NCBI GenBank assembly: GCA_037783545.1
Contig: JBBELK010000438.1
Span: forward strand, 620,001-684,000
Reading direction: 5' to 3'
DNA from: Henricia sp. BOLD:AAB3569
Lineage: Eukaryota > Echinodermata > Asteroidea > Spinulosida > Echinasteridae
DNA: 64,000 bases
In this document: one piece after another, positions 8,439 through 42,200 of the stretch
Position numbering within the stretch: the first letter of the stretch is position 1
How the letters are laid out: every line of letters begins with the position of its first letter
The notes under the pieces: generated by a model
The model's input: the letters and a program-made list of their open reading frames with translations, nothing else
Databases searched by the model: none
What the model was told of the DNA's origin: nothing
Program-made: the position numbers and the translations under genes

Positions 8439-8695
8439 TTATGAACATTATCAACTGGTCACTTTCGCATGCATTTCCCTCGAATACAAAATTTGCAATG
8501 AACCAAAACGTTAACAGTTTTAAAACTGTTAAAGGGGAAGTCAATTAACACTGCCCTCGGCTAATGTCGTTAGAATGTTTTGTCCTTTGAGGGCTGTATA
8601 GTCACAAAAAAGTCCCCAAAAACCTTCACAAGTTTTTGCATACCGCATTGTTTATTGCCACATGTTTATTGTGTACCACACGTATGGGCAAATGT

Positions 8696-8810
8696 GTGAA
8701 AACCTATAGTTAACCGGGTTAACGCTTGTCGTGTGAAAAGAAACTCCGGGTTAAATGTAACCCGGGTTATTTACCGCTACCCGGGTAGAAAAGTTACCCG
8801 GGTCGGAGGT
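8696..8810. repeat. Clustered ACCCGGGT/GTTAACC palindromes
   Basis: CCGGGTTAAC, AACCCGGGTT and TACCCGGGTA recur within 115 bp. Possibly a decayed hairpin repeat. Confidence 0.4.
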
Positions 8811-8847
8811 GGGTAGTGGGAAAAGGCTATATGAGGTCAATGGTCGA

Positions 8848-8924
8848 GTAAACTCGACATTGGTAAGCAAGCATAACGTGTTGTGTGGTCGAGTAAACTC
8901 GACATTGGTAAGCAAAGGGTTTCA
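8848..8924 (+). repeat. Two-copy direct repeat about 340 bp before the ABCA start
   Basis: GGTCGAGTAAACTCGACATT followed by GGTAAGCAA occurs twice, 40 bp apart. Each copy contains the palindrome TCGAGTAAACTCGA. Could be regulatory, but no known site is recognised. Confidence 0.5.
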
Positions 8925-9188
8925 AGTCACAAGCTATTCAAATGAAGTCAAACAATACTGAGCATTTTTTAAGTGTGCGTGTTCATTCCTTTGCTTCTTG
9001 TTACTGGACTTGTGACAGGCTTGTGCGGGACTTGTCACGGACTTGTGATTTTATCGGCTTAGTTGGACTGGTGATAGACTTGTGATGCACTCGACTATAC
9101 TACCATGTTTGATACCTTATTGTGGCTCTGTATTGTATTGCAGAATCTGGTATACATGTAAATTAGTAATTGGGCAAGCAGAGGAACA

Positions 9189-9272
9189 ATGGCATCCTTT
9201 TGGCGTCAGTTTGTCTCTTTGATGTACCTCAACTTGTTGCTGAAAAGCAGAAATATCAAACAGTTGTTGCAG
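9189..9272 (+). CDS. ABCA5: ABCA5-like exon 1 (start codon)
   Basis: Residues 1-28, ending in phase 0 at CAG|gtaagt. The start is chosen because ATG has A at -3 and G at +4, and the peptide begins MASFWRQ, the usual ABCA cytosolic start before the first helix. A TTGCAG acceptor at 9138-9143 may open this exon with 5' UTR; the upstream UTR exon is not identified. Confidence 0.88.
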
Positions 9273-12200
9273 GTAAGTCATATAACATTAAGGAAAACAA
9301 ACTGTCTTAATTAGCAAGGTACACTTTACCCAAACCTGCTGTGGATGCTCGCACAGGTCTGGGGAATCACGATGAGAGCTCATCATATCACTGACTAGTT
9401 GAGGCACGCACGCACTGAATTTCGGTGCGGGACCCCTGCGAAGCTTTTGGCCATTATCATAAGCACCGCGGGTATTAAAGCTTAGAAGCTGCATACAAAT
9501 TAGTCAGCCGAAGTGTGACGTGGTTGCCATGGAAATTGGCTCTAAACTATCATGGCCGTCGGAAAAGGTACCATTGCAAAGCACAGGGACACGGTTAAGT
9601 GATTTTTAGTTTATCAGTCTATATATATCGGTCAAATTAAATCACACCAATAGCAGTGCACGTACTATCAACGACGGCTCACGAAATTAAATGGGTAATC
9701 ATGGCGTTTAACCTATCAGCGTTGAGCTTTCACCGTGATTCCCCAGACCTGATGTGCGAGCATCCACAGCAGGTCGGGGTACGAGGCTTCGTACACTTAT
9801 TAAAGATGCTCCAGAAAATATATTTCGCTCTAACCTATGAATAGTCCCTTCCAGTGGCGGATCCAGCCTCATTAACATACAGGAATACAATGGAATTCAG
9901 GGGGGTTGAACCCCTTGAAATCCCTGTATTTTAATGAGGCTGGATCCGCCACTGCCTTTAGTCACAATAATTTGAACAGGAAAAAAAGTATTTTTAAACA
10001 AATGTACATATTATGCATGCATGCCTCCCCAAAATACTATCCATGGGACGATCTCATAAAATCATCAATCTCTACTACTTGAGCAAATTGTAGCAATTGT
10101 TTGTGTGTATTCACTGTAATGTTCTTATAGGTCTACTCCGGATAAGTTAATTAAAACAAAAATCAGTGGTAATTTTGACGATGCCTTTGAATGTGGATTG
10201 GGACTAAGCGTGAAATTTCAGAATGAGAAAAACATGACAAATGGTATATGGTATCAACATCTCAACACCCATGGGAAAATGGGGGGAGGGTGGCAAAAAT
10301 GTGATCTGGACACACTCCTTTAATGTGGTGGAATGGAATCGAGATGAAAACATGCCGTACTCTCAAGTGTTTCCGATTCTTTAAATTCCCAAATTGACTC
10401 GCCTGGCTGCAGTTGTGTTGCCTTGTTGTAGTTGATATTAAACATTATAGCGGCTTGCCGACCATTTTTCTTGCTGTAAGCAGAATGTCATGAAAGTAAA
10501 AGTGTTCATATTTTTAACCGATCGCATTCAAGTTGTTTTCATTTTGTCAAGGAAATCTTCGTGCCCATCCTTTTCATCGGTGCTGTGCGGCTCGTTTATG
10601 GCATTGCTAGTGTGGAAACATTCCCTGCCATTGGGTACGATCGTTACACAAGCTACAGTTTATTACAAGATTCCAGGCTACCCAATCCGAGGATGCCAGT
10701 TGGCTTCACTCCCAACACCACGGAAACCAACACTGTGATCAGAATCGTCACGGAGGCCTTGGGAGCAAATGGGCCTTATGGGGGCTTGCTGCCGTATGAC
10801 ACCGAGAAGGAAATGCTCCGTGCGTATAATGTCTCGTACCCGTTCGATATTGGGATCGTTTTCAGCACCAAGTTTCCCGACAACTTAACAGTTACAATAC
10901 GCATGTATAGCTCGCCCTTTTTGAGGACCACAGATCTGTACACCGACTTCCCAGGTATGCAGTGGGTATTGACCTACAGAAATCCATTCAAATTAAGCTT
11001 GGGCGGTTCTGCAGTCGATTTCACGAAACATTGCGTAGCTTGCGCAACGTGTGAAAATGGCATAAGCCCCATAGGCTTGCGTGTAACTATCACAGGAATG
11101 TTGCGCAGCTTCCGCTGGCAATAAAAAGTTGCGCAAGCGGGCTTACGAAGTGCGCAAGGACTCGTGAAATCGGCTGCTGGTGGGTACCCGGTTCTATACC
11201 CGGTTCCAACATGAAGATCCGAGTTTCAGTTCCAACTTTTTCACGCACCCGCTGTCAGCATGGTCAGTCGGTTCAAATTTCAAAGTTCAAAGTATCAGTT
11301 CCGGCTCTTGAGAACCGGCTCTTGAGAACGGCTCGAACCGACCCAACCCGGCTCCTAGGACCTTATTTATAAAGCCCGCGGCCCGTAGCGGCACCGGACC
11401 CGGCCCCGTAAACCACCCCGTAGATGACTCCAGCGCCCGCAGTTGATATTCATAAACGACCCGTTGATCTCAGGCCCCGAAATCTTCCCCGGACGGACTT
11501 TTACGGGAGGTCTGCTAGTATACCCGCAGGTTTACGGGGTCCACGCACAGTGTTACTTTGCAATGGAAAACGGTAGCAGCATTCTAAAAAAGCATGTATT
11601 TACAGCCCTATTCCCTCCTATTTTGTGTCATAAATCTGTGTTTTTCTTCGTACTACGTCACGATTCCAAACTGTCCGCCGTGTTTTACTGCATGCTCACG
11701 TTTACTAGGTGACGTCATTACACCGTGCTTTACACCACAGACCCGCTCGCGATCTCGGTTATACCCCCTTCACTACGGTTTTTGGTCAAAACCGCCATTA
11801 ACGTAGTGCGGCACCGCCAGTAGTTTTTCATAGTTTCCCCCCTACCCGTCACACATGTGTTTTTCTTCGCGGTGCGACTGTCGATCTGAACTGTTTGAAG
11901 ACTTTTAGAACACTGAAATTGAAGCAGAAAACCGAAGCTTTTATACTACAAAATATGCCCGCAGTAGCACCGTACAAGCACCTGATCAGTGCAACCTCAT
12001 GGAAACGCCATTGCCGTACAACTTCAATAACACCGCCGGCACCGCCGTAGGAACGCAGTGGCACCGCAGTAAGATCGCCAAATTTTCTAAAATTCCTCCC
12101 TGGCTCCGCAGTGGCACCCCCATACCCGCAGGGCTCCCGTGGTAGCACCGCCATAACCGCAGTAGAACCGCCACGGGATCGCCAGTCTACTTTTTCGGCG

Positions 12201-21200: not shown

Positions 21201-24200
21201 TTTTGCTTAAAGGAACACGTTGCCTTCAGATTTCACGAAATCTCACGTTTGAGGGTGTTCCTTATACTTATTAAGAGTTGTTCTTGCAATAAAACACATT
21301 TAATGTGTTATAATTAGTGAATGGTAATTTAAAAAAACAAACACTGACCTCTGACCCCCACTACATGTCCCGCGAAATGTATACGTATTTCAAGCCGTCA
21401 ATACGATCGTCCGGGTAGTGGGCAAAATGCAGCGACGAACAGGAGTTAGGCAGGTGTCCCGATCTCAGATGTTCCGCGTGCTCAGATGTTCCGATGACCA
21501 AATATGGTAGCCTACGTCACGGAACGTCATGCGCACAGCATACGTAATTATACCAGTTTAGGTGAAGTGCTGAGTTGATCAGCAGAATTCGCGCCATGTA
21601 CGTAGCGCGCAGTATGTACAGGTACTGGGTACGGTCACAGGTTTCTCCACGTTTCTGGTAGGGTACCGTATGCGTACGGGGATATACGGTAGTCTCATTT
21701 TTGCAAGATGGCGGCCGCGGAGCGTTCATGCCGTTTCGCCGTATTTAGAGAGAAAAACGAACAAATAATTTATTACTTGAGCAAGGGGTCTTACGCAGCA
21801 GGGCTTTCTGAGAGTCAGAAGAGAGTCGTGCGTGTGCAGGCAAAGAAACACACGTACGATGAGGCCAGACACATTCGCAAGGGGACAGTTTTACCTTTTA
21901 CACCGGGACATGTGAGCACGCGGAACATCTGAGATCGTGCACGCAACGTGCTGAACTGTTCCGTGACGTCATCGGAACATCTGAGCACGCGGAACATCTG
22001 AGACCGTGACACCGGCGCCGTAGCCAGTGGTCAGGTAAACCTATCAGATGAACGCAAGGTACCATACCATTCTCCGCCTCCCGAGACATGTGTGAAATGT
22101 AAACACATGAACCCACACACACCGACTGGCTGTCAAAAAATGGATCGTCAAGAGAACACAGCAGACGCGTCAAAAAAGAAAAAACGAAAACCTCGCCAAT
22201 CAGGGTAAGAATATTGTCATGGGACAAACCGATAGAAAGGACTTGGATGATTTATACCCAATGGTTATTGTAGACACGAATTAAAAAAACAGGCACATCA
22301 CACGCAACGGAGGAAGGAAAAATAATTTCTTTCTCCAGGCTGGAAATAAGACTAATATAATTTCTCCGCCATTTATGGGAGTCAAGATTTTGACTCCCAT
22401 AAATGGCGGAGCGTGCTGCTTCGAGAAATTACGCAAAATTGAAGCATTTCTAAGGCACGTTTGTGTGGATCATTATATTCTACTTTTTAAACATCTTTCA
22501 GATCGTGCTCATTATACTTCAAACGCTTGTAATAGCCCAAAAACGCACAATAAAGCGCAACCCGAAGGCAACGTTTCCTTTAAGACATTGACGCAATAAT
22601 GGCGGTTTCCAAGCGCGCCCATGCCTAAGCACGCCGCGGCCGTGAAATAGCCTTAATAGTCCGGGAGCCCACTGGGATTTGATGTGACTTTTGCGCCCAA
22701 AAGGTTTGACTGCTAAAATGAGTTGTATGGACCGTGGTAACTGTGGAAAGGCAATTCTTGCAAAACGGGGGTGGTGCGTTTGGGGAGGGGGACGCTGACA
22801 AAACCCCCCAAAATCGGTTTTAATTAGACTTTCGCGCCCAAGCTTAATTCCGGTACCAAATGATAGCCAACAATGTGCCAATCACGAAATTACAACGTAA
22901 GAACGGAAAATATGGTGCGTAATTATTTTAAGAACGGTCTTAATTAGTCAAAAAATACGTTTTAATTAGACTTCCGTGCCCAAGCATAATTCTGGCACCA
23001 TATGACAGCCAACAACGTGCTGATCACAAAAATATAACGTAAGAACGCAAAATATGGTGCAAATTTGGTTTAAGAACGGTCTTAATTAGTGCTCATTTAG
23101 CGCGCGCCGTTAGTAACACTCGAGAAAAGACTAACATGCGGCGAACCACGCGCATATACACACACACAGTACACACAGATTCGTATGTGGCGCATGGCGC
23201 GCGCTAGTCTTTTTACAGGGCATGTGTAGCTAGTGTGCGATGTACAATACAATGTATTGTAGGCTATACTGTACTGTACAAGTTGTTATACAGGCCGTTG
23301 CGTTCAAAGCGCGTAGCAAGTACTGGACTTCGATATTAAAAAGCCGTTGTTTATAGCTTTTTTTTGCTTCTTTTCCATGAGAGAAATGACTTTGGCATGG
23401 GATTATACAGTCATACGATAACATTACACTGCAGTGTACCTCCGTAAGCGTGATTCCCTGATATGTATGTTTGGGGCCGTGTTCGGTATAGGCAGTTTCT
23501 TGCTCAGAGATGTGAGCTCTAAACAAATACGAGAAGGCAAATGGGAATTGAGACACATAAAGAGAAAAAAGTGGAAACTTTCTGTACATTTGCACACGAA
23601 AAGACTGGGGGGCGGGGAGAAAATTAAAGAGCAATGAGGAAATCAACTGAAAAGTTGAGTTTCACATGCAGATTGCATGTTTGAAGACGTTTCATTGCAG
23701 GGATTTGTTGTCATCGTAATTTCCCTGTCATAATTTAATAATAATGTTGCAAAATACAGGCAGTAAAGATGTTGTCCATTTTGTTAAATATTTGAAATAT
23801 TTCAACACGTCCCGCTGTAGCCTGGGTTTTGGAACTAAATGGGTCGTGCACCGAATTAATTCACATTATGCGGCACGATATGTGGCAGAGGGTATCCCCC
23901 TATCATTGTTCCCCCATTGTGTATCAAACATCCAAGGGATTCCAAAGGAATTCCTTTTATTTTTTGGGGGGGAGGGGGGGGGGGTTGGGGGGGGGGGGGG
24001 GGGGGGGGGTGCGTTGAAGGGAAGAGTACCTGGGTTGAGAGTGGGAAGAGAGGGGCGTTAGGAGTCCCTTTGTCATATATATCGTGCTGGGTATGAAGAA
24101 TCACTACGCCAACCCGATAGTACGCCCACAAAAAGTGTTCAGGCACGTTCGTACCAACAAATGCATTTTATTCGTTCCCTCCGGGGAACAACCTCCGTGT

Positions 24201-27200
24201 AAACATGCCTAAAGTGAGTTTCTCCGGGGCATATAGCCCTACGTCACGGACTGCTTTGGACAGGTGTGCACATGCCCAACATGCCCATTTATTTTTATAA
24301 TCTAACACTCCAAAATTGAAGATGTGGTAAACTGGTGCATGATTTTTTTTCCAGTCGAATATCCATTAAGAATCATTTTACGGACCACCTTTAAAAAAAA
24401 AAAATTATCCCTTATTTCCCGGAAGGACCTCAGTTTCCGTTCACCAGTGGCGGATCTAGGCTCATCTATATATAACGATTGGAAAACTTTTAAAAACAAA
24501 TATAACAACAGTGTTACATAATATTTTTTGTGTGTGCATAAATTAATGCTGAATGAATGGTTAAAAAAGCACCTTCAGTTGGCAATTTCTTCCAAAAGGG
24601 TACCATTTTACACTGGGAAAATCATGTGGTGTTTGTTACCATGTTTGTTACCATTGCTGTCAACACTAGAAAAGCGAAAGAATATCGCCCAGAATCTGAA
24701 ATAGAGTCTGATTTTTCTTGTCAACTCGTGAAGTTTAGGTAACTGCAAAAAATGTTGTATTGGGCTTACAGGACAATGGAAAATCCGGCGTATTCCTTAA
24801 GTTTGTATTTCTGTATTTTAGCAGGTGTTGTTTCATTCAAACACAATACAATACAATTGCAGGCATGCAAACTGTGGATAACAGGTATGTGTGAAATTTC
24901 CTCTTTTTAACTTCTCATTTTTCCCAGGCCTTTTTTCATTGTTTTCGTATTCAAAAGTATAGAACGTTTCCACGTTAAGTTCTCTTTTATGTTACTGGAT
25001 TCCCATTTGCCTCCCTCGTATTGTTTACTGCTCACATCCCTGACCAAGCAACTGCCCACCGAACATCGCTCCCCAAACACGCATTTATGGGAATCACGCT
25101 TTATGATTTATATAACGGAGGTATATATATATATAAACACCGTAATGTTATCTTATAACCGTATAATCCTATGCCACAGAGTCATTTCTCTCATGGAAAA
25201 GAAACAAAATAAGCTATGTACAACGGCTTTTTAATATCTAAGTCATACTTTTTAATATCGAAGTCGCATAGTACTTGCTACGCGCTTTACGAACGGCTTG
25301 TGTACATTGTATTGTACAGCATACACATACAGCTACACATGCCCTGTGAGAAGACTAGCGCGCGCCAGCGCCACATACGAATGCGTGTGTGTGAGCACGT
25401 GGTTCGCTGCATGTTAGTCTTTTCTCGAGTGTTACTAACGGCGCGCGCTAAATTAGCACTAATTAAGACCATTCTTAAACCAAATTTGCACCATATTTTC
25501 CGTTCTTACGTTATATTTTTGTGACCAGCACGCTGTTGGCTATCATATGGTGCCAGAATTGTGCTTGGGCGCAGAAGTCTAATTAAAACGGATTTTTTGA
25601 CTAATTAAGACCGTTCTTAAATTAATTACGCACCATATTTTCCGTTCTTACGTTGTAATTTCGTGATTGGCACATTGTTGGCTATCATTTGGTACCGGAA
25701 TTATGCTTGGGCGCGAAAGTCTAATTAAAACCGATTTTTGGGGGTTTTGTCAGCGTCCCCCTCCCCAAACGCACCACCCCTGTTTTGCAAGAATTGCCTT
25801 TCCACAGTTACCACGGTCATTACAACTCATTTTAGCAGTCAAACCTTTTGGGCGCAAAAGTCACATCAAATCCCAGTGGGCTCCCGGACTATAACGTTAG
25901 CATAACTTTTCTGGTACAGTATAAGCACACGTTTTCAGCTAGCGCTTAAGCAGCTCTATGAATTCTTTTTTTTGTGTGTATACTACATGCAGACAATAAT
26001 CTGTCAGCAATGTACAGTATGCATGCAGTGTATCAGCAGGGTTAGTTTTGACTGCTTGCTTTCCAACAGCCCTAGTGGATAATAATAGGACTTCAAAAAT
26101 GCATGTCAACACTGTAGCGGCACCTTTTATGCACCGTACTTTTATGTAAGCACTGACTTACACGTTTACTTTATTAACGTATAGTTCGTGACTGGACTTT
26201 GTCTGCAGAGACACAACACGAACTGTTATACAAATATTGAGCCTAGGAGCATGCTGGGATAGGGTCAAAGGTTATTCTTGTTAAGATGGCCGACGCTCCC
26301 CAATCACGTTTAGATTTCGTTCTGCCAATAAATAATCCTTAATTGTTGTTTGATGAATCAATCCCCGGAGTCACCTAACTTCTTACTCGGCATTCGAACA
26401 TTTAAGTAACAGGGAAACCGTTACACTGGCGTAGTCGGCAGGATGCCGCGTTTGAAGTGTGATTTGCGTGGATTTTAGTGTGCCGATTTTGTGGAAATTG
26501 ACTGAACAGAACAGTGAACATGGTGAAAGTAAAAAAAAAAAAAAATACCATGATGTTTGAACATGAACAGTAACATGATAATGCGGGATATAAGAGACTG
26601 ATTGAAGACTGTAAAAAATTGTCATCGGGTCGTGAGTAGTTCTACAAAATCTTTTGCCGTTTTTATGGTAGGATTTTCAAAACACTTTTGATTCGTTGCA
26701 ATTTTAGCTTGGTCATCAGTAGCTAAGATAATCTCAGCTCTTTTTTTATCATTTTTCATTGGGATGTGGTCTTTTCACGCGTAGAGCTGAGAGAACTTAT
26801 GAACATGAACCCGCCATCGCAAAAACAGGACAAAACAAATGTGTCATTTTCTCACCGTGACACACTAATTCCCCCTAAAACTCACCCAAACCTTGCCAGG
26901 CATAACCACTACGCAGGTCCTTGAGGGAAATAACCAGCCACGATGATTATTTTGCCAACAATTCCAACAAAACAAACCGGTATTCTCACAGCCAGTGCTG
27001 TTGTCTTGTGTTTTAAATGATAATGTGTCTTCTCGTCGCGTGACCCATAGTCTGTGTACAAAGGAATTTGTATGCGCGTCGGTTACCAGTGCACGTGCGG
27101 CCTACCAGTCAAACCTATTTCGCTGTGCGGACGTGATTACGAAATAGGTTTGACTGGTAGGCCGCATGTGCACTGGTAACCGACGCGCATAAAAATTCCT

Positions 27201-30200
27201 TTGTACACAGACTATGGGTCACGCGACGAGAAGACACATTATCATTTAAAACACAAGACAACAGCACTGGCTGTGAGAATACCGGTTTGTTTTGTTGGAA
27301 TTGTTGGCAAAATAATCATCGTGGCTGGTTATTTCCCTCAAGGACCTGCGTAGTGGTTATGCCTGGCAAGGTTTGGGTGAGTTTTAGGGGGAATTAGTGT
27401 GTCACGGTGAGAAAATGACACATTTGTTTTGTCCTGTTTTTGCGATGGCGGGTTCATGTTCATAAGTTCTCTCAGCTCTACGCGTGAAAAGACCACATCC
27501 CAATGAAAAATGATAAAAAAAGAGCTGAGATTATCTTAGCTAGGTCATCAGCACATGTACGTCAACAAACATGGCTGAAAGAGCAGTTTATCTCCGTCGC
27601 TATACTGGGCAGTATATTACCCAACTCTGTCAGTTAAACCACATTGACATTAATGAGATTAGGACCAAGCAGGAGAGAATTGATAGCTTGTGTGACCTAC
27701 CATACATGAAAGAGCCTGTTGAAGAGCAGTCCCCGCAAAAGTCTGACATCCTGATACTGCAGATGATTGAGAAATTAGAAGCAACCAGAAAGAGTGAAAC
27801 AGAGGCACTTTGTCAATCTTTATTGAAAGCTGTGTCAGAGGTCACAAAGCCTCCCATCCAAGAAATACGGTTTGGCCCTGAGCTACCCGATTTCCATAAA
27901 CTTTCTGCTGATGATGACATCACCTGTTATCTTGCGACATTTGAACGCATGGCAACTGCTGCAAAGAAACCCAAAGCAGAGTGGCCACGCCTTTTGGAGC
28001 CCTACCTTACGGGGAAAGCGCAACAAGCATTTCATTCACTGACCGAAAGTGATAAAAAGGACTTTGACAAAATCACTGCCATAATCCTGAGACGATATCA
28101 GCTCACTCCAGAAGCATACAGGCTAAAGTTTAAGCATTCTTCAAAAAAGCCTGACGAAACCTTTGAAGAATTTGCCACACGCCTGAACCTGTACTTCCAG
28201 AAGTGGACGCAGCCGTCCGATCAGTCAAAATCCTGTGCTGATACTACCAGAATATTTGATCTTGTGTTGATAGATCAATTCCTGTCCACTGTAGCAGATG
28301 AAACCTTGTGCCTGAGGTTGAGAGAAAAGCGCTTTACGTCGCTTCAAGCCGTAGCAAAAGCGGCCGATGAATACATTCTGAACCGAAGAATGTCCAATGC
28401 TGATGTGAGTGTCCCCAGACATCACCCTCCTAACAACCAGAAGTTCCGCCCACCCGGTACTTTCAAGTCGAACCGATACGACAACCAGTCAACACCACGT
28501 GAGGACCCAAAGCCAAGTGACCATACTGCCAACTCTTCATTTGTGAAGAATCGTGTGAATGCACCCCCCAAGCAAGGAAGTATGAGAGGCTCATATGAGA
28601 TAGTCTGTTTCAGGTGCCGCCAGATGGGTCACCGAGTGGCAGATTGCCCCTACCCGCCACCACAAGGCAATGAAGTGAAACAAATAAAAGCTGAAGTTAG
28701 GCAGTCACAGCCTAAACCTGTGGAAACTCAGTTCAAAAAACCTGAGACACTAAGAGCGCAAATAAACTACCTGATGACGACTTCTCCGTCAGCCACTTGT
28801 CCATATGATGGTGGTGGCCCATACATTGCTGTGAAAGTTGAAGGTCGAGAGATAAGAGCCTTAGCCGATACAGGGTCTTGCATATCTCCCTCATTACTGA
28901 AGAAGCCTGTGGAAACCTTTTGTTAAATGGTTTTCCAAATTCTGTGCCAACGTCTTTGTCCATGGTTGATGGGACAAAGCTACAAACGACAAGTCATGTG
29001 CAGACTACAATTGAAGTAGGCGGAATTGACACGAGCCTCACCCTACACGTTGTTGACAAGTTGCCAACACCCATCCTGTTGGGAAGAGACTTTGCTAAAC
29101 AAGTCAAGTTAGTTATGGATTTCGATTCTAATTCCTACTGGCTTGGAAGTGGAAGCAACCCTCGTACCAAATGGCCTCTACTTGGTCTCCCCGAAAATCT
29201 GCCTGTACCGTGCCCTGAAGTTAGTGAGAACAATCCCTCACAAAAGTCATGCCTGAGTGAAGAGACAACACAAACTGAAAATCATGACTGTGTTGCACAC
29301 TTATTAGAAGAGTTCCCTGAGGTGTTGAATGAGAAACCTGGGCGTACAAATGTTGCTCAGCACTACATGTACATAGATACAGGAGAGTCTTCCCCAGTTC
29401 GAAGTTTCCCCTATCGTACATACATGTACATGTACACAGATCGACGAGACTCGCTCAGAAACCAGCTACAAGTAGACAAAATAGCTGAACCCCCTGACCC
29501 CCCTGATCCCCCTGATGTCCCCTTGCAGAAGGTGACCGAACAAAATGAACACTCACGAAAGAAGAGGAAACAACACTATGACAAACACCGCCGGCGCCGT
29601 CCACCGAAAATCAACAATTGGAGATTCAGTGATGCTCAAGACACACCCACAGTCTAATGCTGGAAAACATTTTGCAGCAAAGCTGGCCCCTCGATGGTGT
29701 GGGCCATTTTCCGTTATTGAGCAGCTTACCCCTGTGAACTATAAACTTTTGGCGAACAATGGCAGTGGAAAAAACATTGTCGCCCACGCAGACCAAATGA
29801 AAGCATGCTAACTCTATAGGCAAAGTGACAATCAAACCAAAATAAGCATTTTTGGAAAATTGCTGTTTAAGCTGGTCTGAACAGTAGTGAAACCAAAAAA
29901 GTGATTTACATTTTTTCTGGCCTATAGAAATAGTAAATTACCAAAAAAAAGAAGAAAGATTCTTACTCCATTATTTGTTTGGTCTCATTTTCATTGTTGT
30001 TTGCACAAACTCGCTGGAACAAACAATTTTTATGTGAGAAAAGAAACTATGCACAAGCTCTGCATAAAAGTTCTCTATAAAAAAGAAAAGACTTTGAGTA
30101 AAGTTTACAAAAGTACATGTATGTTGAACTTTAAAGTTACAAGTGTTAACCTGAAAAAAATGTATACTTTGTCTTAGTGGAGGGGAGTGTAGCGGCACCT

Positions 30201-33200
30201 TTTATGCACCGTACTTTTATGTAAACACTGACTTACACGTTTACTTTATTAACGTATAGTTCGTGACTGGACTTTGTCTGCAGAGACACAACACGAACTG
30301 TTATACAAATATTGAGCCCAGGAGCATGCTGGGATAGGGTCAAAGGTTATTCTTGTTAAGATGGCCGACGCTCCCCAATCACGTTTATATTTCGTTCTGC
30401 CAATAAATAATCCTTAATTGTTGTTTGATGAATCAATCCCCGGAGTCACCTAACTTCTTACTCGGCATTCGAACATTTAAGTAACAGGGAAACCGTTACA
30501 ACACCGGACACCGTGTTTACACTTGATCCCGAGTTCGGGGTCGAACACCAAGCTCAGGATCAACCCCGGATCACAAACTGAGTGTAAACGCTCTCGGAAC
30601 CAAATTGGCCCCGTATCAGACCCCGAGATTTTGTTCTCGCGTTGGCAGAGGGTTGGATCCTGAGCTCTGGATCATTTTGCGGTTAGATAAGCAATTAATC
30701 TTTAACGCATCCTGCCGCGTCTGCACAGCCATAGCGGGAAAAAGCCCGCGAAAGTAGACCATATGCATCTTTGTCATGCTTGTTAAGTCGTGTTTATGGT
30801 TTTATAAAAGTTATTATGAAAGCATGTAAACCATTCAACTTTAAAAAAAATAAATTATTGTTGATGATTTTAATAGGAATACCTTTTCCATTGTCATTTC
30901 TGTCGCAATAAAAAGGTTACATTTTCAAGACAATTTGGGGTTTTTGTCATGCAAGTGTGTGAAACTGCTGCTGGCCGATTGAGGCAGTGTGTGAAGCGTG
31001 TGAAGAAATATGGTAGATACGCGCAAAACTCGGACTGTGTTGTTATTTTACAACATTTTTGGGGTTTGGTAATAATAATTTTAAGATTTTTCTGGGTATG
31101 AATTCCGTTCACTGCCGTGCATTAGGTCTATGGAACATGGCAACAAAAGTTTTAAATTGATGAGTGTTTTTTCAATCCAAAAATCACTTACCGGTACTTT
31201 TAAAATGTAAACACGTTTTGGTGATTATTAAGTCATAAGGAGAATAAGTGGCGACCAGTTAACGGAATTATTTCCTTTTTCTGTTACATGTATTTAGATT
31301 ACGAATGTCGAGTACTGGAGAATAACATCTATGGTTTTGTTCAACCCGGTCTATTGTATTGTCCTGGAAATAGTTACTTGACGAGTGGCTTTGCTAAATT
31401 GCAAGTCATCCTACAAAATGCAGTGGCTTCAGTGAGTATCTCATGGGGACTGTATCAAACGCCCATAAGGGACTTTCGCATCCTGCGGCCATCTTGAAAA
31501 AAGTTTCAGTAGAGGGGAACAAAATTGCTGGCAACCAATAAAAAAGCCCTAATGGCAAATACCTCACCGACTGACGTCATTTACGTTGGCGCTAATCATT
31601 GGCTGCCAACAATTTTGTTTCCCTCTGCTGGATCTTTTTTCTAGATGGCGGGGGGATGCAAAAGTCCCTTATTGTATCATTTGCAGTTTTTGTTTTGTTT
31701 TTGTTTTTCAAATTGCAGGAACAAATGAACAACGGCATTCATAAATACCTTAGACAGTTTCCGCATTCCTATTGGCTGAGAGCACATTACGTGGGCAGTT
31801 TTAAACGAATGATCAAGGCCCAACCAGTCTTAATTTTTAATAAACACAAATTTAGCAAATGGTGCCCAAAACTATGCAAATGAAGGTGCCCAAAACTATG
31901 CTAATGAGATGCAGTTATGCCTGTCCCGACTCCATTTCACTGAGTTATGTGGTACACACTTTTTAAAGGTAGAACGCATGATTGGTAAACTGTTTAAGTG
32001 GTGTTAATTCCTGTTGTGATGAGAAGCCCATGTTGATAAATCTGCCCTGTAAATATGTCAGCCACATATACCAGTAGGTGCAGTAATACTTCTGAAATTG
32101 TGAAAAATCCATGCATGGTTTTGTTTTGAGTTCATTGGTAAAAAGTCTTTTGCAAAAGACCTTTTAGAAAACCATCTTCAGTTAATTTCTTATACAAAAT
32201 ACCATTTTGGACTGAAATAAAATCATTGTTATTAACATATGTTTAGTAAGGTTTTTCTTGTCAACTCGTGAACAATTTAATTTGGGGTCACTGCAAATGA
32301 GGTGTTTTTTTAATCGAGATCACCACTCCCTCATGTACGGAACCAGACTATTGGGCTGTTGGCTTCACACAATTTCTAAACCATGGAGACTGTTTTTCAT
32401 AGTTTTCTGGGAATATAGATAATAGACTAGAGGTTGGTTCTTATCACACACACACACACACACATCCTCAATCACACAGGGAGATACACGGAATGCCATT
32501 TGTATTATATATTTTTTATTATATAACGCCCAAGTAGATCCTTGTCATCTGATTGGACGGCAGCAGCTTACGTGTCGTTCAATATTTAATCCATTTAATG
32601 CTACGTCACTAACCGTGCAGTTTTGTTCAATTTGCCGTGCAGTTTTGTGGACATACTTTTTTTTCATTGCACGGTGCGGGTGCACCCAATGTACGCGCAG
32701 TCAGCCTGCACGAACATTCGCAGGCACGCACACACGCACACACGCATGCACGCAGTGTGTGTATGACTATAGTCATGTTTAGATGGGCACTACCTTCGGT
32801 AAGGTAAAGTTAACCCGACAGTCCAACTACCAACGACGCGTGTTCACACGGTGCTTTAACAACGCCGCGCAGGCATGCTTGCACACGGCCCATATACCAA
32901 AGGTGCACGCTCGTAAGTAGCGCGCTACTCATAAGATTTCTTGTGAGTAAATCGTCGTTGGTAACTTGTAAGTAAGTGCGTCCACACGGTCACTACTTAC
33001 GAGCTTACTCACAAGCGCCCACTACCAACGACTTACTCACAAGTTAACAACCATCGTCTGAAAGCACATATGCATGTGTGACGACCCCGACACAAACGTT
33101 TTTACAACTCGCAAGTGCAAGAAACTTGAAGGGTAAGCCTGAATAAATGTTTTTTATCAATGTAGGATGACAAATAATGAATGTTTTCATTTGTGCAATG

Positions 33201-36200
33201 AAAGGAATATTTTCAATCGATGAAAATATTTCATGAAAATATTCCTCCCATTGCACTCATAAACATTCATTATTTGTATGGTACATGTATTTGCGGAATG
33301 TTGACCCAGCTTTACTGACCCAAGGATTTAGTTCAATAAATTTAATAGTTTGCTTCTTTCACCACGCAGGTGGCTGCAAATAAGTCGCTTCCAATGCCAG
33401 ATTTTCGAGTACGGATGATGCCCAAGACCCGATTTGTCCAGCTGAAACCCAGCGAAATGAGAGTTGTTGCAGCGATTCTTTACATTGTGACGTACGCCGT
33501 GTTCATCGGAGTCTTGCTGTCTAATCTGGTCTATGACAAGGAGAAGAAAATTAAGGAGAGCATGCTGATGATGGGAATGTCCAATAGCACATACTGGTCA
33601 GTTTTTCATTGAACATGAGCGTAGGCTGGTTTGGGTCAGGGGAGGGAGCGGTATTTGAGTGAGGGTACACATGTCTACTACATGTATTATAGGTACCAAT
33701 GTCTTTGTATGATATTGAAGCTACCGTAAGAGTTGGGAAGTTGATCAGAAATTGTTTTCTTTAAAATGACTCGTCTAGCCTTAAAATATGCAGATTGGGT
33801 GGAAAAAACCCCAAAATGTTGAAACACTTTCATTTTCAAGCCATTATCAACTTCCCAATTCTTTCCGCTACTGCCTGAAATACTGCACCCCCAACACTGA
33901 GATTTTGGGGGAGGGGAGGGAAGGTGAGAGGGGGTGGGGGGTGGGGGGTGGGGGGTGGGGTGTGGGGTGGGGTGGGGTGGGGTGGGGTGGGGTGGGGTGG
34001 GGTGGGGTTTCTCAAAGGCACGGTACATGAGCGTAGGCTGGTTTGGGTCAGGGGAGGGGGGTGCATGGTAGGGGTAGGGGTAGGTACAGGTACGGTGGTA
34101 CATATGTCTACTACATGTAGGTACCTATACCGGGGTATGTCTTTGTACCCATGAGTTGGGAAGTTGATCAGAAATTGTTTTCTTTAAAATGACTCATCTA
34201 GCCTTGAAATGTGCAGATTGGATGGGGAAAACACCAAGGGCTTAAGCTTCAAAAACAGTAGATATATCAAGATCCCAATTTCTTTGTAACAATGTCGACA
34301 GTGCCCTAATTTTTTTACACAATTCAGGCTGACTTGGTTCGTCCTGTATGGAGGCATCATGATCCTGGTGTCATTTTTAATTGCCATTTTGAGTAAATTC
34401 GCTTTGGCTACCGTACCCAATGGAAATATCCTGCTACTATTCCTGATTTTCTTCCTGTATGGAATGTCAAGTAAGTTGCATATTTATAACTACCTCACTT
34501 TTTCGGGAGAATGTGCACAGAAATCTGAAATTGTGACCCGTCATCTTTTTTGGACAATTTGAAATTTCAGCACCTTTCCTACAGAAAGGTGCAGTTGTGG
34601 ACAAAAATAATCATGTGGTGTTTAAGCCTAAAGCGGGCCTCCCACTGTGCGATTTCTGCTACGAATTTCCTACGATTGGGTACGATTCTGTGTAGAGTCT
34701 ATAGACAGTCTCTGGTGATCGTACCAATTCGTAGGAAATTCGTGGCAAAAATCGCACAGTGGGAGGCCCGCTTAACATATATCGACATTGCAACTGGAAG
34801 CAATTAGTGGCAACTGGGAGCAACTGATCAGTTGCATGTACATGCACTGAAAAAATCCCAGTTGCCGCGAGTTGCTCATGTTTTACTTTCTTGCAACTAC
34901 ATTCAGTTGTACCCAGTTGAGGTCAGCTGCGTCGATGTGTATGCGTAATTGCAACTAGTTGCTGTCAGTTGCTCACATGCTTCTGGGCCCAATTCCAGTT
35001 GCAATTTTCATGTACGCTAGGCTATCATCAACACTGAGGAAGGTGTTTCTCATCAACTTGTGAAGTAAAATTAATTGTAGGTCCCTGCAAATGATACAAT
35101 GGGCCTTTAAATGTTCCTAGGAGCCGTCCAAAGTTGTCAAAATTTTCACGGTTCTATAAAGCGTAGGAAGGGGGCGGGGGGAGGGGGGTTCGAGAGCAGT
35201 GTAGGACTTTACATGCACTGTAAAATGTTGACACTTCATGGTACTGACAGAAACATTTTGATAAGTAGTATTTCGGAGGGAGGGAGGAGGGTCTGTTGAA
35301 TGTTGACAACTTTTGACGGCCTCTTAATTTTTTTCTCCCCAGTGGTCAGTCTGTCTTTCGTGCTGACTCCATTCTTCAACAAAGCCGTTGTGGCCGAGAG
35401 GATTGCAACCCTCGCCACTTTGGGCATGGGGCTCATCTTTTTTCCCGTGGGTTTCTTCTCGGCAGATATTGCCTTCGTCTACAAATGGTTGCTAAGTTTC
35501 ATCTCGCCCCTTGCACTGGGTCTTGCCTTAGATCAGGTATATGCTGTCACTTTGAACCCAATAATGTTCTCTTTGCATTCATACAACCCTATTCAAAGAC
35601 ATATTACATGACTAGAAAACGTTTATTAAAAACGGGAACAGCATTACATAATTACAGAATAATGTGGAAAAAGTTGTTGAATGAATGCTAAAAAAATTGT
35701 CTGCAGACAAGTTTATTTATTTTGTTCAAGCACCCCACTTGGCATTTTATCCTATAAAGGTACCATTTTACAATGGTGTTTATTACCATTGCTATCAACA
35801 CTTTTCATCAGATTTGTCTTGTCAACTTGTGAAGTAATATTTTGCAATCCCAGCTTATGACATGACTAAATGTCCCAGTGCACTATTTTTTTCAAGCAAA
35901 CCTTACAAAATCCCCACCCCCCAGCCCCTTCCCCCTCCCCTCCCCCTCCTCTCCCCCTCCCCTTCCCCCTTCCCTTCCCCCTTCCCTTCCCCCTCCCCTT
36001 GCCCCTCCCCTTGCCCCTCCCCTTGCCCCTCCCCTTGCCCCTCCCCTTGCCCCTCCCCTTGCCCCTCCCCTTGCCCCTCCCCTTGCCCCTCCCCTTGCCC
36101 CTTGCCCCTCCCCTTGCCCCTCCCCTTGCCCCTCCCCTTGCCCCTCCCCTTGCCCCTCCCCTTGCCCCTCCCCTTGCCCCTCCCCTTGCCCCTCCCCTTC

Positions 36201-39200
36201 CCCCTCCCCTTCCCCCTCCCCTTCCCCCTCCCCTTCCCCCTCCCCTTCCCCCTCCCCTTCCCCCTCCCCTTCCCCCTCCCTTCCCCCATCCGTGTGTACA
36301 TACTTTATGGACCGCCTCTAATTACCCTTTATTCAAGAAATATTACATCAAACGTTTTCTTGACCACATGTTTTTAGGCAATGGTCTTGGAGATGGGTGA
36401 TTCAGGACTCCAGTTTGATAACTGTGGCATTGGCGGTTTCCCGCCATACGTTGTCATGCTTGCAATCGACGCAGTCTTGTATCTACTACTGGCTATCTAC
36501 TTTGACAATGTCATTCCAGGTAATGGAATTTATAATGCTCTCAAAGATGTGACCACAGCACAGTGGTTTAAGACCCAGACATTTCGGCCGATTTTGGTTT
36601 GCAGTTTTTTGACTTATAACAAGTCAGTTGTATCTGAAACAATGGATTTGGGGCAAAAAAGTTGTTTGTGCCCTGACAAATTGCCTATTTGTAGCCTTAA
36701 TGTAACTGTATGAGAATAAGCCGAGTATTTAAAACGTGCAGTCAACTGAACTAAATCCCATATTTTCCCGAATAGAAAAACAGTTTTGTGGTAATGAGCT
36801 GGGTAATGAGCTGTTTTGGATTGCAAATAGGTTGAATGGGTGTGCAAAATGACTACATCAAAGGTATATTGAAGTAAGTTTGTGGTATTTTGTCATGTCT
36901 GGGTGGTACTGGCTTTTATACCACTGTGCACAGTTAGGGCAAAGCTCAGACTGACTATAAAACGTCATGTGACTGTATGGGCAAGATACCATGGTATTGT
37001 TGAAACATAAGGGGCGTTCGAGATGCTTACACCGGGTAACACCAACTTACACCGGAGCGTTCTTTTAGCTATCACGTGATACACGAGTCTGCCCCGGTGG
37101 CAGCCACCACTACCCGAGCTCGCGGCTGGGTCTGTGGTGTAAAGCAAGGTGTAGTGACGTCACCTAGTAACCGCGAGTAGTAAGGAATCGCGACAGTTTG
37201 GAATCGCGACGTGAGTACGAAGAAAAACACTTATTTATGACACAAAATAGAAGGCGAATAGAGCTGTAAATACATTTTGCTGAATCAGTAGATGTCTGTG
37301 GGCATTGACGAAGTTTATTTGGGTACTTTAGGGCAACTATTTGTGCGTGGCGCCGGCTTCATTCTTCATCCTGAGTCAAACGATAACGGCGTTTATAAAG
37401 CTCCACCCGTACAACCTTTGACCACGTGTTCCCAGAATTCAAAGCGAGACCCTGTGTCGTTCGTTTTGCATCTTCTGGGGGCTTCCCCCGGTGTAAACCC
37501 CGTGTTACACGAGGTAAGCATCTCGAAAGCCCCCATTGTGTGTTTGTGAAATTAAGTACTCTAAGGCCCGCTTCAAACGTCGCGCGTATGCCGTGTCAAA
37601 TTAAATTTAACTTGGCACGACGTTGAAACGACGTTAGCACGGCAGTGGCTTCAAACGTCGAACTTAATTGCAAACTCCCAGTCGAGTTTAAATACATCCA
37701 ACATGGCGGATGAGTAATGTGCACGTCATGGACGTTGTGCACGTGCGTTTTCAATTCTGTCCATTGTACGTCACCATTTTATTATTTTGATGCACTTGTT
37801 TGTTGGTTATTTCTTTACTCACATACGCGCTGCGAGCATGCGCATTCCTAGTTGTGAACAATATTGCGGACCAACTTCGAACTGGAATTAAATTCGACAC
37901 GGCAGAAGCACGACGTTTGAAGCCGAGCCGTGCTTGTGCCGCACTAAATTGAGTTAGCACGGCAGACCCTGTCGAGCTAAAATCTTTTGCCGTGTCGAAC
38001 TCATTTTGCCGAGCCAAATGGCTTCAAACGTCGTGCTTGTGCCGTGTCGAATTAAAAAAATCAAGTTGAATTTAATTCGACACGGCATAAGCGCCATGTT
38101 TGAAGCGGGCCTAACACTCCTCAATCAATATGATTTCACATACACCCTAGGGAGTTGGGGTTAATTAAAAAATAGTTGTTGTGTACTGCAACTTCAAATA
38201 TTGTCTGTACAGGAACGTACGGTCAACCCAAGCCTCCGTGGTTTTGCTTCATGCCTTCGTACTGGTGCAAGGCTCGTGGAAAGGGAAATTTGATAAATGA
38301 TCTTGACGAGATAGAGCTCACAGCCCAGGATGACATGGAACGCGTGTCTCCTGAAATGAGAGCTAAAGTCGGCATCAGGTAAAAAGAATGTACTCCTATG
38401 GTTTATTACGAGCGTTTATAAGCAGTAAGCTTGGGTGGTTCTGGCGGGTATTCGGTTCCACCCAATTTTAACATGAACCAAGTTTTGGTTCAAACTTTTG
38501 TTTACCCACTGTGAGTCGGTTCCAAGGTTCTAGGTCATGGGAATCGCCTCCAACCTAAATAGAGTGCAACAGCGCGTGCAACGTAAATAGAGTGCAAACT
38601 GGCCACCAAAACTCCACCGCGCGTGGCTGGCTGGTTGGCTGGCTGGCTGTGCAGGCTGGCTGGCTGGCTGTGCAGGCTGGCTGGCTGGCTGTGCAGGCTG
38701 GCTGGCTGGCTGGCTGGCTGGCTGTGCAGGCTGGCTGGCTGGCTGTGCAGGCTGGCTGGCTGGCTGTGCAGGCTGGCTGGCTGGCTGGCTGTGCAGGCTG
38801 GCTGGCTGGCTGGCTGGCTGGCTGTGCAGGCTGGCTGGCTGTGCAGGCTGGCTGGCTGGCTGGCTGTGCAGGCTGGCTGGCTGGCTGTGCAGGCTGGCTG
38901 GCTGGCTGTGCAGGCTGGCTGTGCAGGCTGGCTGGCTGGCTGGCTGTGCAGCCTGGCTGGCTGGCTGTGCAGGCTGGCTGGCTGGCTGGCTGTGCAGGCT
39001 GGCTGGCTGGCTGTGCAGGCTGGTTGGCTGTCCTGGCTGGCTGGCTGTGCAGGCTGGCTGGCTGGCTGGCTGTGCAGGCTGGCTGGCTGGCTGGCTGTGC
39101 AGGCTGGCTGGCTGGCTGTGCAGGCTGGCTGGCTGTGCAGGCAGGCTGGCTGGCTGGCTGTGCAGGCTGTGCATTGTATCATGCATGATGTCATGTGCGT

Positions 39201-42200
39201 TGCATACTAAATAATGGCCGCTAGTTATCCTGCTTGGCCGGCGGTCGATGTCAATGTGTTGATAAAACGTTTTATGTTAATAAAACGTGCTGTTTTAGCT
39301 GCCGCAGGAAAAAAAAGCATTGACGCCCATGCTTGAAATTGACGCTCGCTTGGACCAGAGACCGAACATCGTTTTTTTTTTGCCTAAAGCTTCTGTGTGC
39401 TGAAAATTCCCACTCTCAGACTGACCACTTTTTAAATCAAAAAGTGGAGAAAGTTTTTGCGCTTCTTTTGTTGCTCAGTCATAGTTAGGTGGTGCCATTG
39501 GCAGCCGACGGCTAGAGACACCAGAGAATCCCCTTGCACTTTATGAAAAAGTGCTCTGGAATCTGTGTTGTACTGTCGTGTATCCATTTAACTTGTTAAC
39601 AGACTAATGATTGTCTTTGTTTTGATGACATATGTACATGTAGTATCCGCAATTTGACAAAGACCTACCCAGGCAGTTGGGGGAAGCCAGACGTTCTTGC
39701 AGTAAGAGGTGAGAAATTTGCCAAATGATACATTGAAATACAATTTAAATACCCGACTGTATTTTCTGAGGTCGATTTCACAAAGAAATATTTGCGACGC
39801 GTCGTAACAACTGATGAATCCGTCGCAACAACACGACTGCCAAATAAATATTTGCAACTTTTAGAAGGGTTCTGCCCTACCTCGTCCCCGTGGTCTGAAC
39901 GATCGCGCTCGACCATCCTGGGGACAACGTTGGATTCTGCCCACAACTTGCAACGTGTACTCGTCGCAAGTGTTTTGTGAAATGCAACTATAAACCCATT
40001 GTTAACTTACGAAGGGTTTAGCAAGTTGCACTGAATTTGAGCACTTGCAACGCGTCGCAAGCCTTTGTTAAATCGACCCCAGGTAACATTTGATTTTATA
40101 ATTTCTAGGGATAAGTCTGGACATCTACGAAGGCCAGATCACATGTTTGTTGGGGCATAATGGAGCCGGCAAGACCACCCTGATCAATGCTCTAACTGGC
40201 CTTGTACCGGCCGACAGCGGCCATGCTACCATCTGTGGCTATAGCATCAGGGATCCCATACAGATGCAGAAGATTCGCTCCATGATGGGCGTATGCTCAC
40301 AGGATAATACACTGTTTGATAAGTTGACACCACGAGAACACCTGAAGGTGTATGCTGGATTGAAAGGGGTTGCACGAGAGGATATAGAGGCAGAGGTACA
40401 AAATTGATTTGATATTGTTTTAGGCAAATTTAACCCGATATTTTTATTAGCAATGTTTGTAAAGGCATGTGTCGTTTCGGAATGTTTAAGGTATGAATCT
40501 CTTTAAAAATCACTCAAAAATATGATGCTATGAATAAATTCCATTTGGTACAGGTTTTAGACCCTAAACATGTTACCTTGATATACTTTTACAAACTGGG
40601 TAATTCCCAAAATTAGGGGTCCAAAATGTTTGGTGTCCCAGTTACGTACGACACTCTCTGCTTCAAAATCACCACTTATGACCACAAATTCTCAGTAATG
40701 GACTATGGCCATTTGTTTTCTGATTCCTGAAAAATATTCAAAACAAAAGACCATAAAGGCTTATCATTTGTTTTATGGTATTGAATAGGAGTTTGGTGTC
40801 CCGGGTTACCTGCGCCAATGAAAATTGGCTGTAGAATGAGTTTGCACTAACCTTGGTGCCATATCTACACACAAACATTAAATTTGAGTGGCATTTGTAC
40901 AAATAAAAATATTTGTTTCTACTGGGAAACCACTTTCAATCATTAAAAACACTTGAAGCATGTCACACTTTTGGACCCGTAATTTTGGGAATTATCCAAC
41001 TACAAAGTTTCTCTCTCAAATTGGGACAAAACCCATCAATTGCAAAGAAAAACCTCCCTAGCAACAGGAAACGTTTACCGAGCAACGAGTACAGTAAACA
41101 GTTATTTATATTGGCCAGCTTGGTGGTTGAGTGCTTACGACGTCTGTCTAGTTTGCAGGAGGACGTGGGTTCGAGTCCCACCCGAGCACGCTATGAAGTT
41201 CTCTCTTAGGGCAAAGCAAAAGCCTAATTAATAATTCATTCTTCCCGACGCAAGCCAGGTAGCATTATCTCACCAGTTCTTTCTAATGCTGTAATTTAGT
41301 TATTTTACAAGATAGGAAACAAAATGGGGAGAGAGAGAACTCTATGCAGCTGGGATGTTCTAGATGCATTTAGTCAAACAATTTGCCAAAAATGTGCAAA
41401 TAAACAGAATAATTGGACATAACAAAAATGTTAAGCAGCCAATCAGTTACCATGGTGACTGGGTCTAAACATTCACTGATAATCTGAAACGTCCAATGCT
41501 AAAGTTCAAGGAAACAATTCACTGGTTTTTACACAGTAACCTTGGAAACCCAAAACAGGTGACGTTTTCACTTTAGTATTCTGTTATAGATTTTTTTCTA
41601 CAAATGTCTATGTGAGAGTACACTACTCACAATAAGTTTGGGATATTGTGGGGTGTATGCATATATTTTATTGAGGGTATGCATTCTGCTTGAATGATTT
41701 TGTGTATGATTAGACAGTTGTATCTGCATGACAGACACACCTTGTCACAGGAATAGGCGAAAACAGTCATTTGACGAAAAAAAATCCAAAAACCACAACG
41801 TACCAATACTTGTTTTGAGTAGTGTAGTGCGGTAATATAATCTACCTTATATTTAGAATTCCAACAATGTCACTTCTGAATTTGAGATGAGCTGCCAGCA
41901 GCATGTTATCGAGGTTATTTGTTTCTCTTTAATAGGCTGATAAAATCTTGAAACTGACCATGCTGGACCAGTCGGCCAACACCAGGTCTATAAACCTCAG
42001 CGGTGGACAGAAACGCAAACTGTGTGTTGGCATTGCACTCATTGGAAACCCCAGGGTACGTATTGCGAAAGCGGGACATTGGTATATGTGCGACGAGGGG
42101 GCGCATCCTCGTTATATTACATACATGTATAACCCCCAACACCTTGGTTCTATTGAAATTTGTGTGCAAATTGGAGGCTTTGTTACTGTTAGGGTTAAAG

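What the first reader, a model, noticed from the sequence alone, without database searches (positions are those of the whole stretch)
26711..27551. 823-bp near-perfect palindrome inserted between primer site and gag of a young LTR element
Seen: two 403-bp arms with almost no mismatches, a 17-bp spacer, and an exact 9-bp duplication GGTCATCAG. It must be younger than the host retroelement, whose LTRs differ by about 1%. Known: 9-bp duplications with long TIRs fit Mutator-like or Foldback elements. Inference: if the retroelement is transcribed, the genomic RNA would carry a ~400-bp hairpin, a strong Dicer or ADAR substrate.
Basis: partly seen in the sequence, partly recalled or inferred. Interest (0 to 1): 0.75.

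Follow-up and report, generated by a model that had tools for sequence, protein, structure and literature searches.

The report
Young palindromic transposon inside a retroelement
A small "jumping gene" that is almost a perfect 823-base mirror sequence has landed in a young retroelement; it belongs to a large, recently active family in this genome, its two halves tend to stay matched, and copies that lost one half lost it starting at the middle.

Summary
Window 26720-27542 is an 823-bp palindrome: two 403-nt arms with 2 mismatches, a 17-nt spacer, an exact 9-bp duplication GGTCATCAG on both sides. It lies between 5' LTR and gag of a shortened LTR element. Two sibling LTR elements carry the empty site with one GGTCATCAG, so it is a real insertion.

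The family is large: 1340 matches to the terminal 21-base pattern (reversed-pattern control 0); 80 of the first 100 listed ends form inward pairs, 36 of 40 pairs 96-827 bp long. Of 33 separate two-armed copies read, 31 have their own exact 9-bp duplication, one 8 bp, one none. It is a non-autonomous foldback transposon, probably moved in trans by a Mutator-like transposase; no transposase gene was linked to these ends.

In eight copies that lost all or part of one arm, the loss starts 0-3 nt (seven) or 19 nt (one) past the spacer. Galileo of Drosophila has comparable matched arms, two-arm and solo-arm copies. New member of a known kind; moderate interest.

The parts
26711..26719 (.). left copy of 9-bp target site duplication GGTCATCAG
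   Evidence: single copy at the empty site of two sibling LTR elements
26720..27122 (+). left arm (403 nt) of the palindromic foldback element, begins TAGCTAAG
27123..27139 (+). 17-nt asymmetric spacer CTGTGCGGACGTGATTA, the centre; 66 exact copies in the genome
27140..27542 (-). right arm (403 nt), ends CTTAGCTA; 2 mismatches to left arm
27543..27551 (.). right copy of 9-bp target site duplication GGTCATCAG
26113..26425 (+). 5' LTR of the host retroelement (313 nt)
27571..28926 (+). gag ORF of the host retroelement (451 aa; SCAN domain, CCHC zinc knuckle)
28878..29657 (+). ORF with weak aspartic-protease similarity (below Pfam cut-off); no further ORF of 150 aa or more is listed before the 3' LTR
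30188..30500 (+). 3' LTR of the host retroelement, 3 differences from the 5' LTR

Best explanation
It is a non-autonomous, cut-and-paste DNA transposon of foldback form. A transposase made elsewhere, most likely Mutator-like, recognises the TAGCTAAG ends, cuts the element out and inserts it at staggered cuts that are repaired as 9-bp duplications (ends, duplications and empty site: shown; transposase: inferred). It inserted into a pre-existing LTR element between 5' LTR and gag. The two arms stay nearly identical because sequence is copied now and then from one arm to the other, and exchanged between copies, by recombination or by template switching in replication or gap repair (pattern shown; molecular route inferred). 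Copies that fail have lost one arm, or part of it, from the edge of the spacer outward, as expected if the hairpin centre is a weak point for nucleases or for polymerases during gap repair (pattern shown; cause inferred). Any RNA crossing it would fold into a ~400-bp hairpin (computed).
For: Empty sites in sibling LTR copies C648 and C112 with one GGTCATCAG. Of 35 two-armed elements read, 33 have an exact 9-bp duplication; without the C274 copy of the window (L009) and a tandem duplicate (in L028), 31 of 33 have 9 bp, 1 has 8 bp (L041), 1 none (L044, degenerate end). Terminal 21-base pattern: 666 + 674 matches, 0 + 0 for the reversed control. Of 100 listed ends 80 form 40 inward pairs (paired by hand): 9 of 130 bp or less, 4 of 374-483, 18 of 641-758, 5 of 817-827, 4 over 1700 bp. 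Arms in step: arm-arm divergence 0.19% against 0.78% between elements and 1.2% between lineages (32 elements); position-9 G allele: 22 elements, 20 with G at both ends, 2 with one (a degenerate copy and a chimera); inner CC variant: 24 elements, 18 on both arms, 4 on one arm, 1 chimera, 1 broken at the centre. One-sided arm losses: 8 copies, 7 starting 0-3 nt and 1 starting 19 nt past the spacer.
Against: No transposase gene was found between such ends; middles of 4.8-, 4.5- and 3.4-kb end-pairs showed a PNMA/gag-like ORF in one and nothing recognised in the ORFs scanned of the other two. The MULE assignment rests on duplication length and arm form only. The one copy read of the 736-bp class has unlike inner arm segments (91.6% palindrome), and two one-arm variants are shared by copies with different duplications, so matching of arms is frequent, not universal. 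Only the 40 best-scoring of 1089 first-look candidates were scored and read, biased to copies like the window's. Elements counted only by pattern were not checked for duplicated or allelic stretches.
Confidence: 0.8

Rival explanations
1. Arm identity simply reflects youth: a few master elements, each already palindromic, amplified recently, and no arm-to-arm copying takes place.
For: Arm-arm divergence is low and 14 of 32 elements have identical arms; each lineage's markers could have been doubled once in one master; the four elements with position-9 G and the inner CC variant on both arms (C45, C274:504821, C461, C1207) lack the exact 17-nt centre and may be an old separate lineage.
Against: Several both-arm variants are private to one element (L023 one, L027 two, L032 one, L045 one), each needing two matching mutations; end allele and inner allele occur in all four combinations, mostly alike on both arms.
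Confidence: 0.14
2. Every transposition rebuilds one arm from the other (obligate hairpin or snap-back copying), so arms are identical at each insertion.
For: Widely shared variants are on both arms (positions 9, 73 and 110 in 14 of 14 carriers; position 9 in 20 of 20 two-ended carriers).
Against: One-arm variants were passed to separate insertions: L035 and L041 share the inner variant on the same arm with different duplications, and L010 and L025 share 216G on one arm.
Confidence: 0.06
3. The mover is not Mutator-like but another superfamily that makes duplications of about 8-9 bp (for example Merlin, hAT or KDZ; their duplication lengths are recalled).
For: No transposase was linked to these ends; 9 bp alone is not unique.
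Against: 9-bp duplications in 31 of 33 and long inverted repeats are typical of Mutator-like and foldback elements (PMC3169594, PMC6446971, passages).
Confidence: 0.25
4. Assembly artefact: folded reads or a mis-join made the palindrome.
For: Palindromes are hard to assemble; no reads were available.
Against: Different flanks with 9-bp duplications in 31 of 33 separate loci, an asymmetric spacer found in both orientations (31 + 27 exact centres), empty sites.
Confidence: 0.01

Closest known systems
Galileo foldback-like transposon, two-TIR and solo-TIR copies (Drosophila mojavensis; PMC3573991, passages read)
   Same: Copies reduced to two long inverted arms (49) and solo arms (64), 98-100% identity between arms of one copy, chimeric copies; authors propose conversion among arms and copies.
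   Different: [quoted passage not shown] here 9 bp, no tandem repeats found in the arms of this class, and a complete palindrome with a 17-nt spacer.
Tm1 Mutator/Foldback family (root-knot nematodes; PMC3169594, passages read)
   Same: Composite long inverted repeats, mostly 9-bp duplications, MITE-like and transposase-bearing groups.
   Different: Tm1 arms average 93.15% identity and have non-inverted terminal motifs; here the TAGCTAAG ends are inverted and the arms of the elements read average about 99.8% identity by substitutions.
Tetris foldback (Drosophila virilis; PMC4079207, passages read)
   Same: Foldback without found transposase, 8-10-bp duplications, assigned to Mutator by duplication length and form.
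   Different: Three complete copies with tandem-repeat arms and a variable middle; here hundreds of ends and almost no middle.
Rehavkus (PMC6446971, passages read)
   Same: 9-bp duplication, inverted repeats of 26-400 bp, minisatellite near one end; a related older copy here also holds a minisatellite (L055/L056).
   Different: PHD-finger transposase not looked for by a model and not seen; membership untested.
Palindromic AT-rich repeats, PATRR (human; PMC4255720, passages read)
   Same: Breakage concentrated at the centre of symmetry.
   Different: PATRR events described there are translocations, often with symmetric central loss; here one-sided losses that keep the spacer, in a mobile element.

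Membership tests
Foldback-type transposon (structure) | long inverted repeats forming most of the element | tested here: met
   806 of 823 nt are arms; one 736-bp and one 110-bp relative also fold back
Drosophila FB family | internal tandem repeats within the arms | tested here: not met
   0 tandem arrays in window 26700-27560 at score 30. Works like a foldback, not filed as FB.
Mutator-like elements (MULE) | 8-11-bp target duplication | tested here: met
   31 of 33 separate insertions 9 bp, 1 of 33 8 bp, 1 none
Mutator-like elements (MULE) | MULE DDE transposase encoded by an autonomous copy with the same ends | tested here: inconclusive
   24 PF10551 hits in the genome, 20 over the cut-off (the control search rang in 4 of 14 named genomes), none tied to these ends; middle stretches of three long end-pairs without one
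Rehavkus | PHD-finger transposase with adjacent minisatellite | not tested
   no coding copy was read and no Rehavkus model was searched
Galileo / P superfamily | short (7-8-bp; recalled) target duplication | tested here: not met
   9 bp in 31 of 33, 8 bp in 1
Gypsy-type LTR retroelement (host, not the palindrome) | paired LTRs, gag with zinc knuckle, reverse transcriptase | tested here: inconclusive
   LTRs and gag present; no ORF of 150 aa or more listed between 29657 and the 3' LTR, so no reverse transcriptase seen

The most novel reading that the evidence does not exclude
Repair after excision both damages and mends the palindrome. A polymerase filling the gap copies one arm and the spacer; it may then stop, giving losses that begin 0-3 nt past the spacer, or snap back on the few bases just made and copy the first arm as the second, giving perfectly matched arms. 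Mobilisation would then act as an occasional self-correcting step that keeps a long palindrome alive in a large eukaryotic genome and spreads variants onto both arms. The private both-arm variants and the one-arm recombinants seen here are what such occasional events would leave.
Probability: 0.17. Interest if true: 0.7.

Novelty: new member of a known kind. Interest (0 to 1): 0.42.

Why it matters
Long perfect palindromes are unstable (established knowledge), yet this genome holds 58 exact centres of one 823-bp palindrome class (including some broken or duplicated copies), allele patterns that point to arm-to-arm copying, and scars that show where palindromes fail. It is a natural data set for measuring arm conversion and centre loss in a eukaryotic germ line. 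It also places a 400-bp RNA hairpin between LTR and gag of a young retroelement, a testable source of double-stranded RNA against that element.

Tried and rejected
Autonomous partner: three long end-pairs (4.8, 4.5, 3.4 kb) were sampled by 1.0-1.2 kb in the middle; one held a PNMA/gag-like ORF, and four ORFs of the other two gave no Pfam match over the cut-off. Viral contigs: 0 exact matches of the terminal 21-mer. Rfam on the window: two tRNAs only. Idea that the single-arm copies are longer elements with a distant second arm: 14-20 kb on the broken side of L020, L021, L024 and L029 showed no second arm. Idea that the solo arm of L029 joins the centre of the second palindromic family: no match beyond a short repeat seen by eye, dropped. 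Idea of a 21-nt-spacer lineage from the 270-nt spacing: dropped, because the copies with that spacing, C461 and C43 apart unchecked in detail, mostly have the 17-nt centre. Idea that no-arm, one-arm and both-arm states form one series on a single background: weakened, because the four both-arm copies with position-9 G lack the exact 17-nt centre; I lowered the novel case from 0.20 to 0.17 and the best explanation from 0.82 to 0.80 for this. Target preference: only a weak symmetric A at -5 and T at -2 in 31 sites. Papers: listings from searches; one search (MULE, foldback, terminal inverted repeats, gene conversion, homogeniz together) found 0 papers. Passages also seen of PMC5225508 (Muta1) and PMC3310237 (one passage). 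A count of the second palindromic family was not obtained. The species was not identified.
Full report
Observation. Arms 26720-27122 and 27140-27542 are 403 nt each with two mismatches, separated by 17 nt, and flanked by GGTCATCAG on both sides. As RNA it folds into one hairpin of -788.7 kcal/mol, against -218.5 on average for 20 shuffles. The host has LTRs at 26113-26425 and 30188-30500 with three differences in 313 nt and a gag ORF with SCAN and zinc-knuckle domains whose first listed ATG is at 27571, shortly after the second duplication. The host is short: after a weak protease match no ORF of 150 aa or more is listed before the 3' LTR. I did not test the primer site.

Insertion proved. A search with the 294 nt left of the insertion scored six candidates and gave seven matches. 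Two are the window and its copy on contig C274, which matches the window at 99.99% over 8.1 kb and is an allelic or duplicated stretch. Two other elements, C648 and C112, were read across the site: both have one GGTCATCAG followed directly by the gag leader, without a palindrome. The two remaining matches, on C219, were not read.

Family. The genome is 740.7 Mb in 2104 contigs; the organism was not identified. One arm as query gave 77 matches from the 40 scored of 1089 first-look candidates. I fetched these places: 40 elements, 35 with two full-length arms and 5 with one (L020, L021, L024, and L029 twice as a tandem duplicate). Of the 35, 33 have an exact 9-bp duplication. Without the C274 copy of the window and the tandem duplicate in L028, 31 of 33 have 9 bp, L041 has 8 bp, and L044 has a degenerate end and none; the 31 nine-base sequences all differ. 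The terminal 21-base pattern (one base free) occurs 666 + 674 times, with none for the reversed control. Of the first 100 listed ends, 80 make 40 inward pairs: 9 of 130 bp or less, 4 of 374-483, 18 of 641-758, 5 of 817-827 and 4 over 1.7 kb; 20 ends stay unpaired, the last perhaps only because the list stops there. A 736-bp copy read in full is a 91.6% palindrome with a 9-bp duplication, and a 110-bp copy is the target of the L023 insertion. The 823 class has 58 exact centres, among them one broken copy (L021), one chimera (C161) and duplicated stretches, so it is a minority of the family.

Arms in step. Aligning both arms of the 35 two-armed elements and listing variants per element shows three kinds. 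Lineage variants at positions 9, 73 and 110 are on both arms of 14 of 14 carriers. Some variants private to one element are on both arms (L023 one, L027 two, L032 one, L045 one). The other variants are on one arm. Arm-arm substitutions are 24 in 12,891 aligned pairs (0.19%) in 32 elements (two duplicates and L044 left out), against 0.78% between elements and 1.2% between lineages; 14 of 32 have identical arms. Genome-wide, the G at position 9 is found at 42 ends in 22 elements: 20 have it at both ends, 18 of 812-876 bp and 2 of about 120 bp; the two others are the degenerate element L044 (C105) and a chimera on C161 (read). The inner variant at 289/293 has 41 exact hits: 17 pairs and 7 unpaired. 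I read the partner arm of three unpaired hits (C151, C219, C293) and the centre of a fourth (C1035); two more were already read (L035, L041) and one is the chimera. The 24 elements divide into 18 with the variant on both arms, 4 with it on one arm (L035, L041, C151, C219), one chimera and one broken at the centre.

Recombination. The end allele (A or G at position 9) and the inner allele occur in all four combinations: A without CC (window), A with CC (C2, C3), G without CC (for example L033), G with CC (C45, C274:504821, C461, C1207), mostly alike on both arms. L035 and L041 carry G at both ends and CC on one arm only. A caution: the four G-with-CC elements lack the exact 17-nt centre, so they may be a separate older lineage and not the end product of the L035/L041 state. 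L045 has unlike alleles at position 217 only. Elements known by pattern alone were not checked for allelic or duplicated stretches; C151 and C219 in particular could be one event.

Against an obligate arm-copying step: L035 and L041 share the one-arm state but have different duplications, and L010 and L025 share another one-arm variant, 216G. Elements can therefore move with unlike arms. The 736-bp copy L065 has clearly unlike inner segments. So matching of arms is frequent, not universal.

Scars. The bare 17-nt spacer occurs 66 times, 58 of them with five bases of both arms. The other eight places are seven loci, because C2 holds a tandem pair. Together with L021 there are eight copies that lost all or part of one arm: L020, L021, L024, L029, C290, C368, C429 and C1035. 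The match to the second arm ends 1, 19, 3, 2, 3, 0, 1 and 2 nt past the spacer. In C290, C368 and C429 the same arm resumes at position 284, 27 or 75. For L020, L021, L024 and L029 no second arm was found in 14-20 kb. For C1035 only 49 nt were read. Places found through the spacer search are selected for breaks near it, but the four found through the arm search are not, and they end 1, 19, 3 and 2 nt from it; in that arm-based set the only other damaged arm end is L044's outer end. If losses began evenly along 403 nt, seven within 3 nt would imply several hundred losses among some 66 elements (my estimate). In L055/L056 an older single-arm relative also stops near the centre of the 736-bp type. 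One-sided loss starting at the hairpin centre fits either nuclease attack on the hairpin or abortive gap repair after excision; I cannot separate these. Centre breakage of palindromes is described for human PATRRs (PMC4255720, passages). Template switching that makes and repairs stems is described in PMC8794818 (abstract, start of the introduction and outline).

What moves it. 9-bp duplications and long inverted repeats point to Mutator-like transposases; MULE duplications are given as 8-11 bp in PMC6446971 (passages), and a foldback family with mostly 9-bp duplications and a transposase group is described in PMC3169594 (passages). The genome has 24 hits to the MULE domain, 20 over the cut-off; the tool's control search of 14 named genomes rang in 4. 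I could not place one between these ends. Middle stretches of three long end-pairs gave one PNMA/gag-like ORF and nothing over a Pfam cut-off in four other ORFs scanned.

Compared with known systems. Galileo in Drosophila mojavensis has 49 two-TIR and 64 solo-TIR copies, 98-100% identity between the arms of one copy, and chimeras, and its authors suggest conversion (PMC3573991, passages). So arm identity and solo arms are not new as such. What this case adds is a set of both-arm private variants and one-arm recombinants in one young class, and the clustering of losses at the spacer edge to the nucleotide; I did not see these in the passages read and did not search for them specifically.

Limits. 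Full reading covered the 40 best-matching places of 1089 candidates, which favours copies like the window's. Assembly polishing could in principle make arms alike, but unlike arms are present in 18 of 32 elements, so it does not erase differences in general.

Noticed in passing
window 22657-25891: A 3.2-kb element with ~947-nt inverted arms (84.9% alike) holding a ~140-nt tandem repeat, ends TAGTCCGGGAGCCC, is absent from the near-identical C274 copy; a 3-bp TAA appears duplicated. A polymorphic DNA transposon, perhaps Harbinger-like by its duplication (recalled).
   Followed up: partly
L056:5420-5970 and L055 (palindrome at 8508-9330): A second palindromic family (551 bp, ends TACCCCTAGA, 9-bp duplication GGTAAGCAC) sits in one paralogue at the site where the TAGCTAAG palindrome sits in the other, with the same duplication. 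Hot spot or coincidence unknown.
   Followed up: partly
L034:481-821: A 341-bp palindrome (94.5%) whose outer arm sequence resembles, by eye, the inner part of the second palindromic family.
   Followed up: no
L061:53-1069: Chimera: 194 nt of one lineage's arm, then a complete arm and spacer of the other lineage, then one right arm; fits nested insertion plus recombination.
   Followed up: partly
L024:255-357 and 1504-1605: Sequence after the broken palindrome centre holds an inverted 95% copy of about 100 nt that lies upstream of the arm; possible fold-back rearrangement.
   Followed up: no
L056 about 5195-5321 and 5997-6140; same in L055: Minisatellite (GTCGAGTTGTCTCAACG-like) in inverted halves inside an older relative of the element.
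   Followed up: no
L063: A 400-aa ORF with a PNMA (gag-type) match over the Pfam cut-off lies within a 4.5-kb pair of TAGCTAAG ends.
   Followed up: partly
window 35862-36400, 38530-39210, 54650-55294: Long minisatellite arrays with open frames that look like repeat artefacts.
   Followed up: no
window 41117-41189 and 47498-47570: Two tRNA-Thr genes (anticodons AGT and TGT).
   Followed up: no
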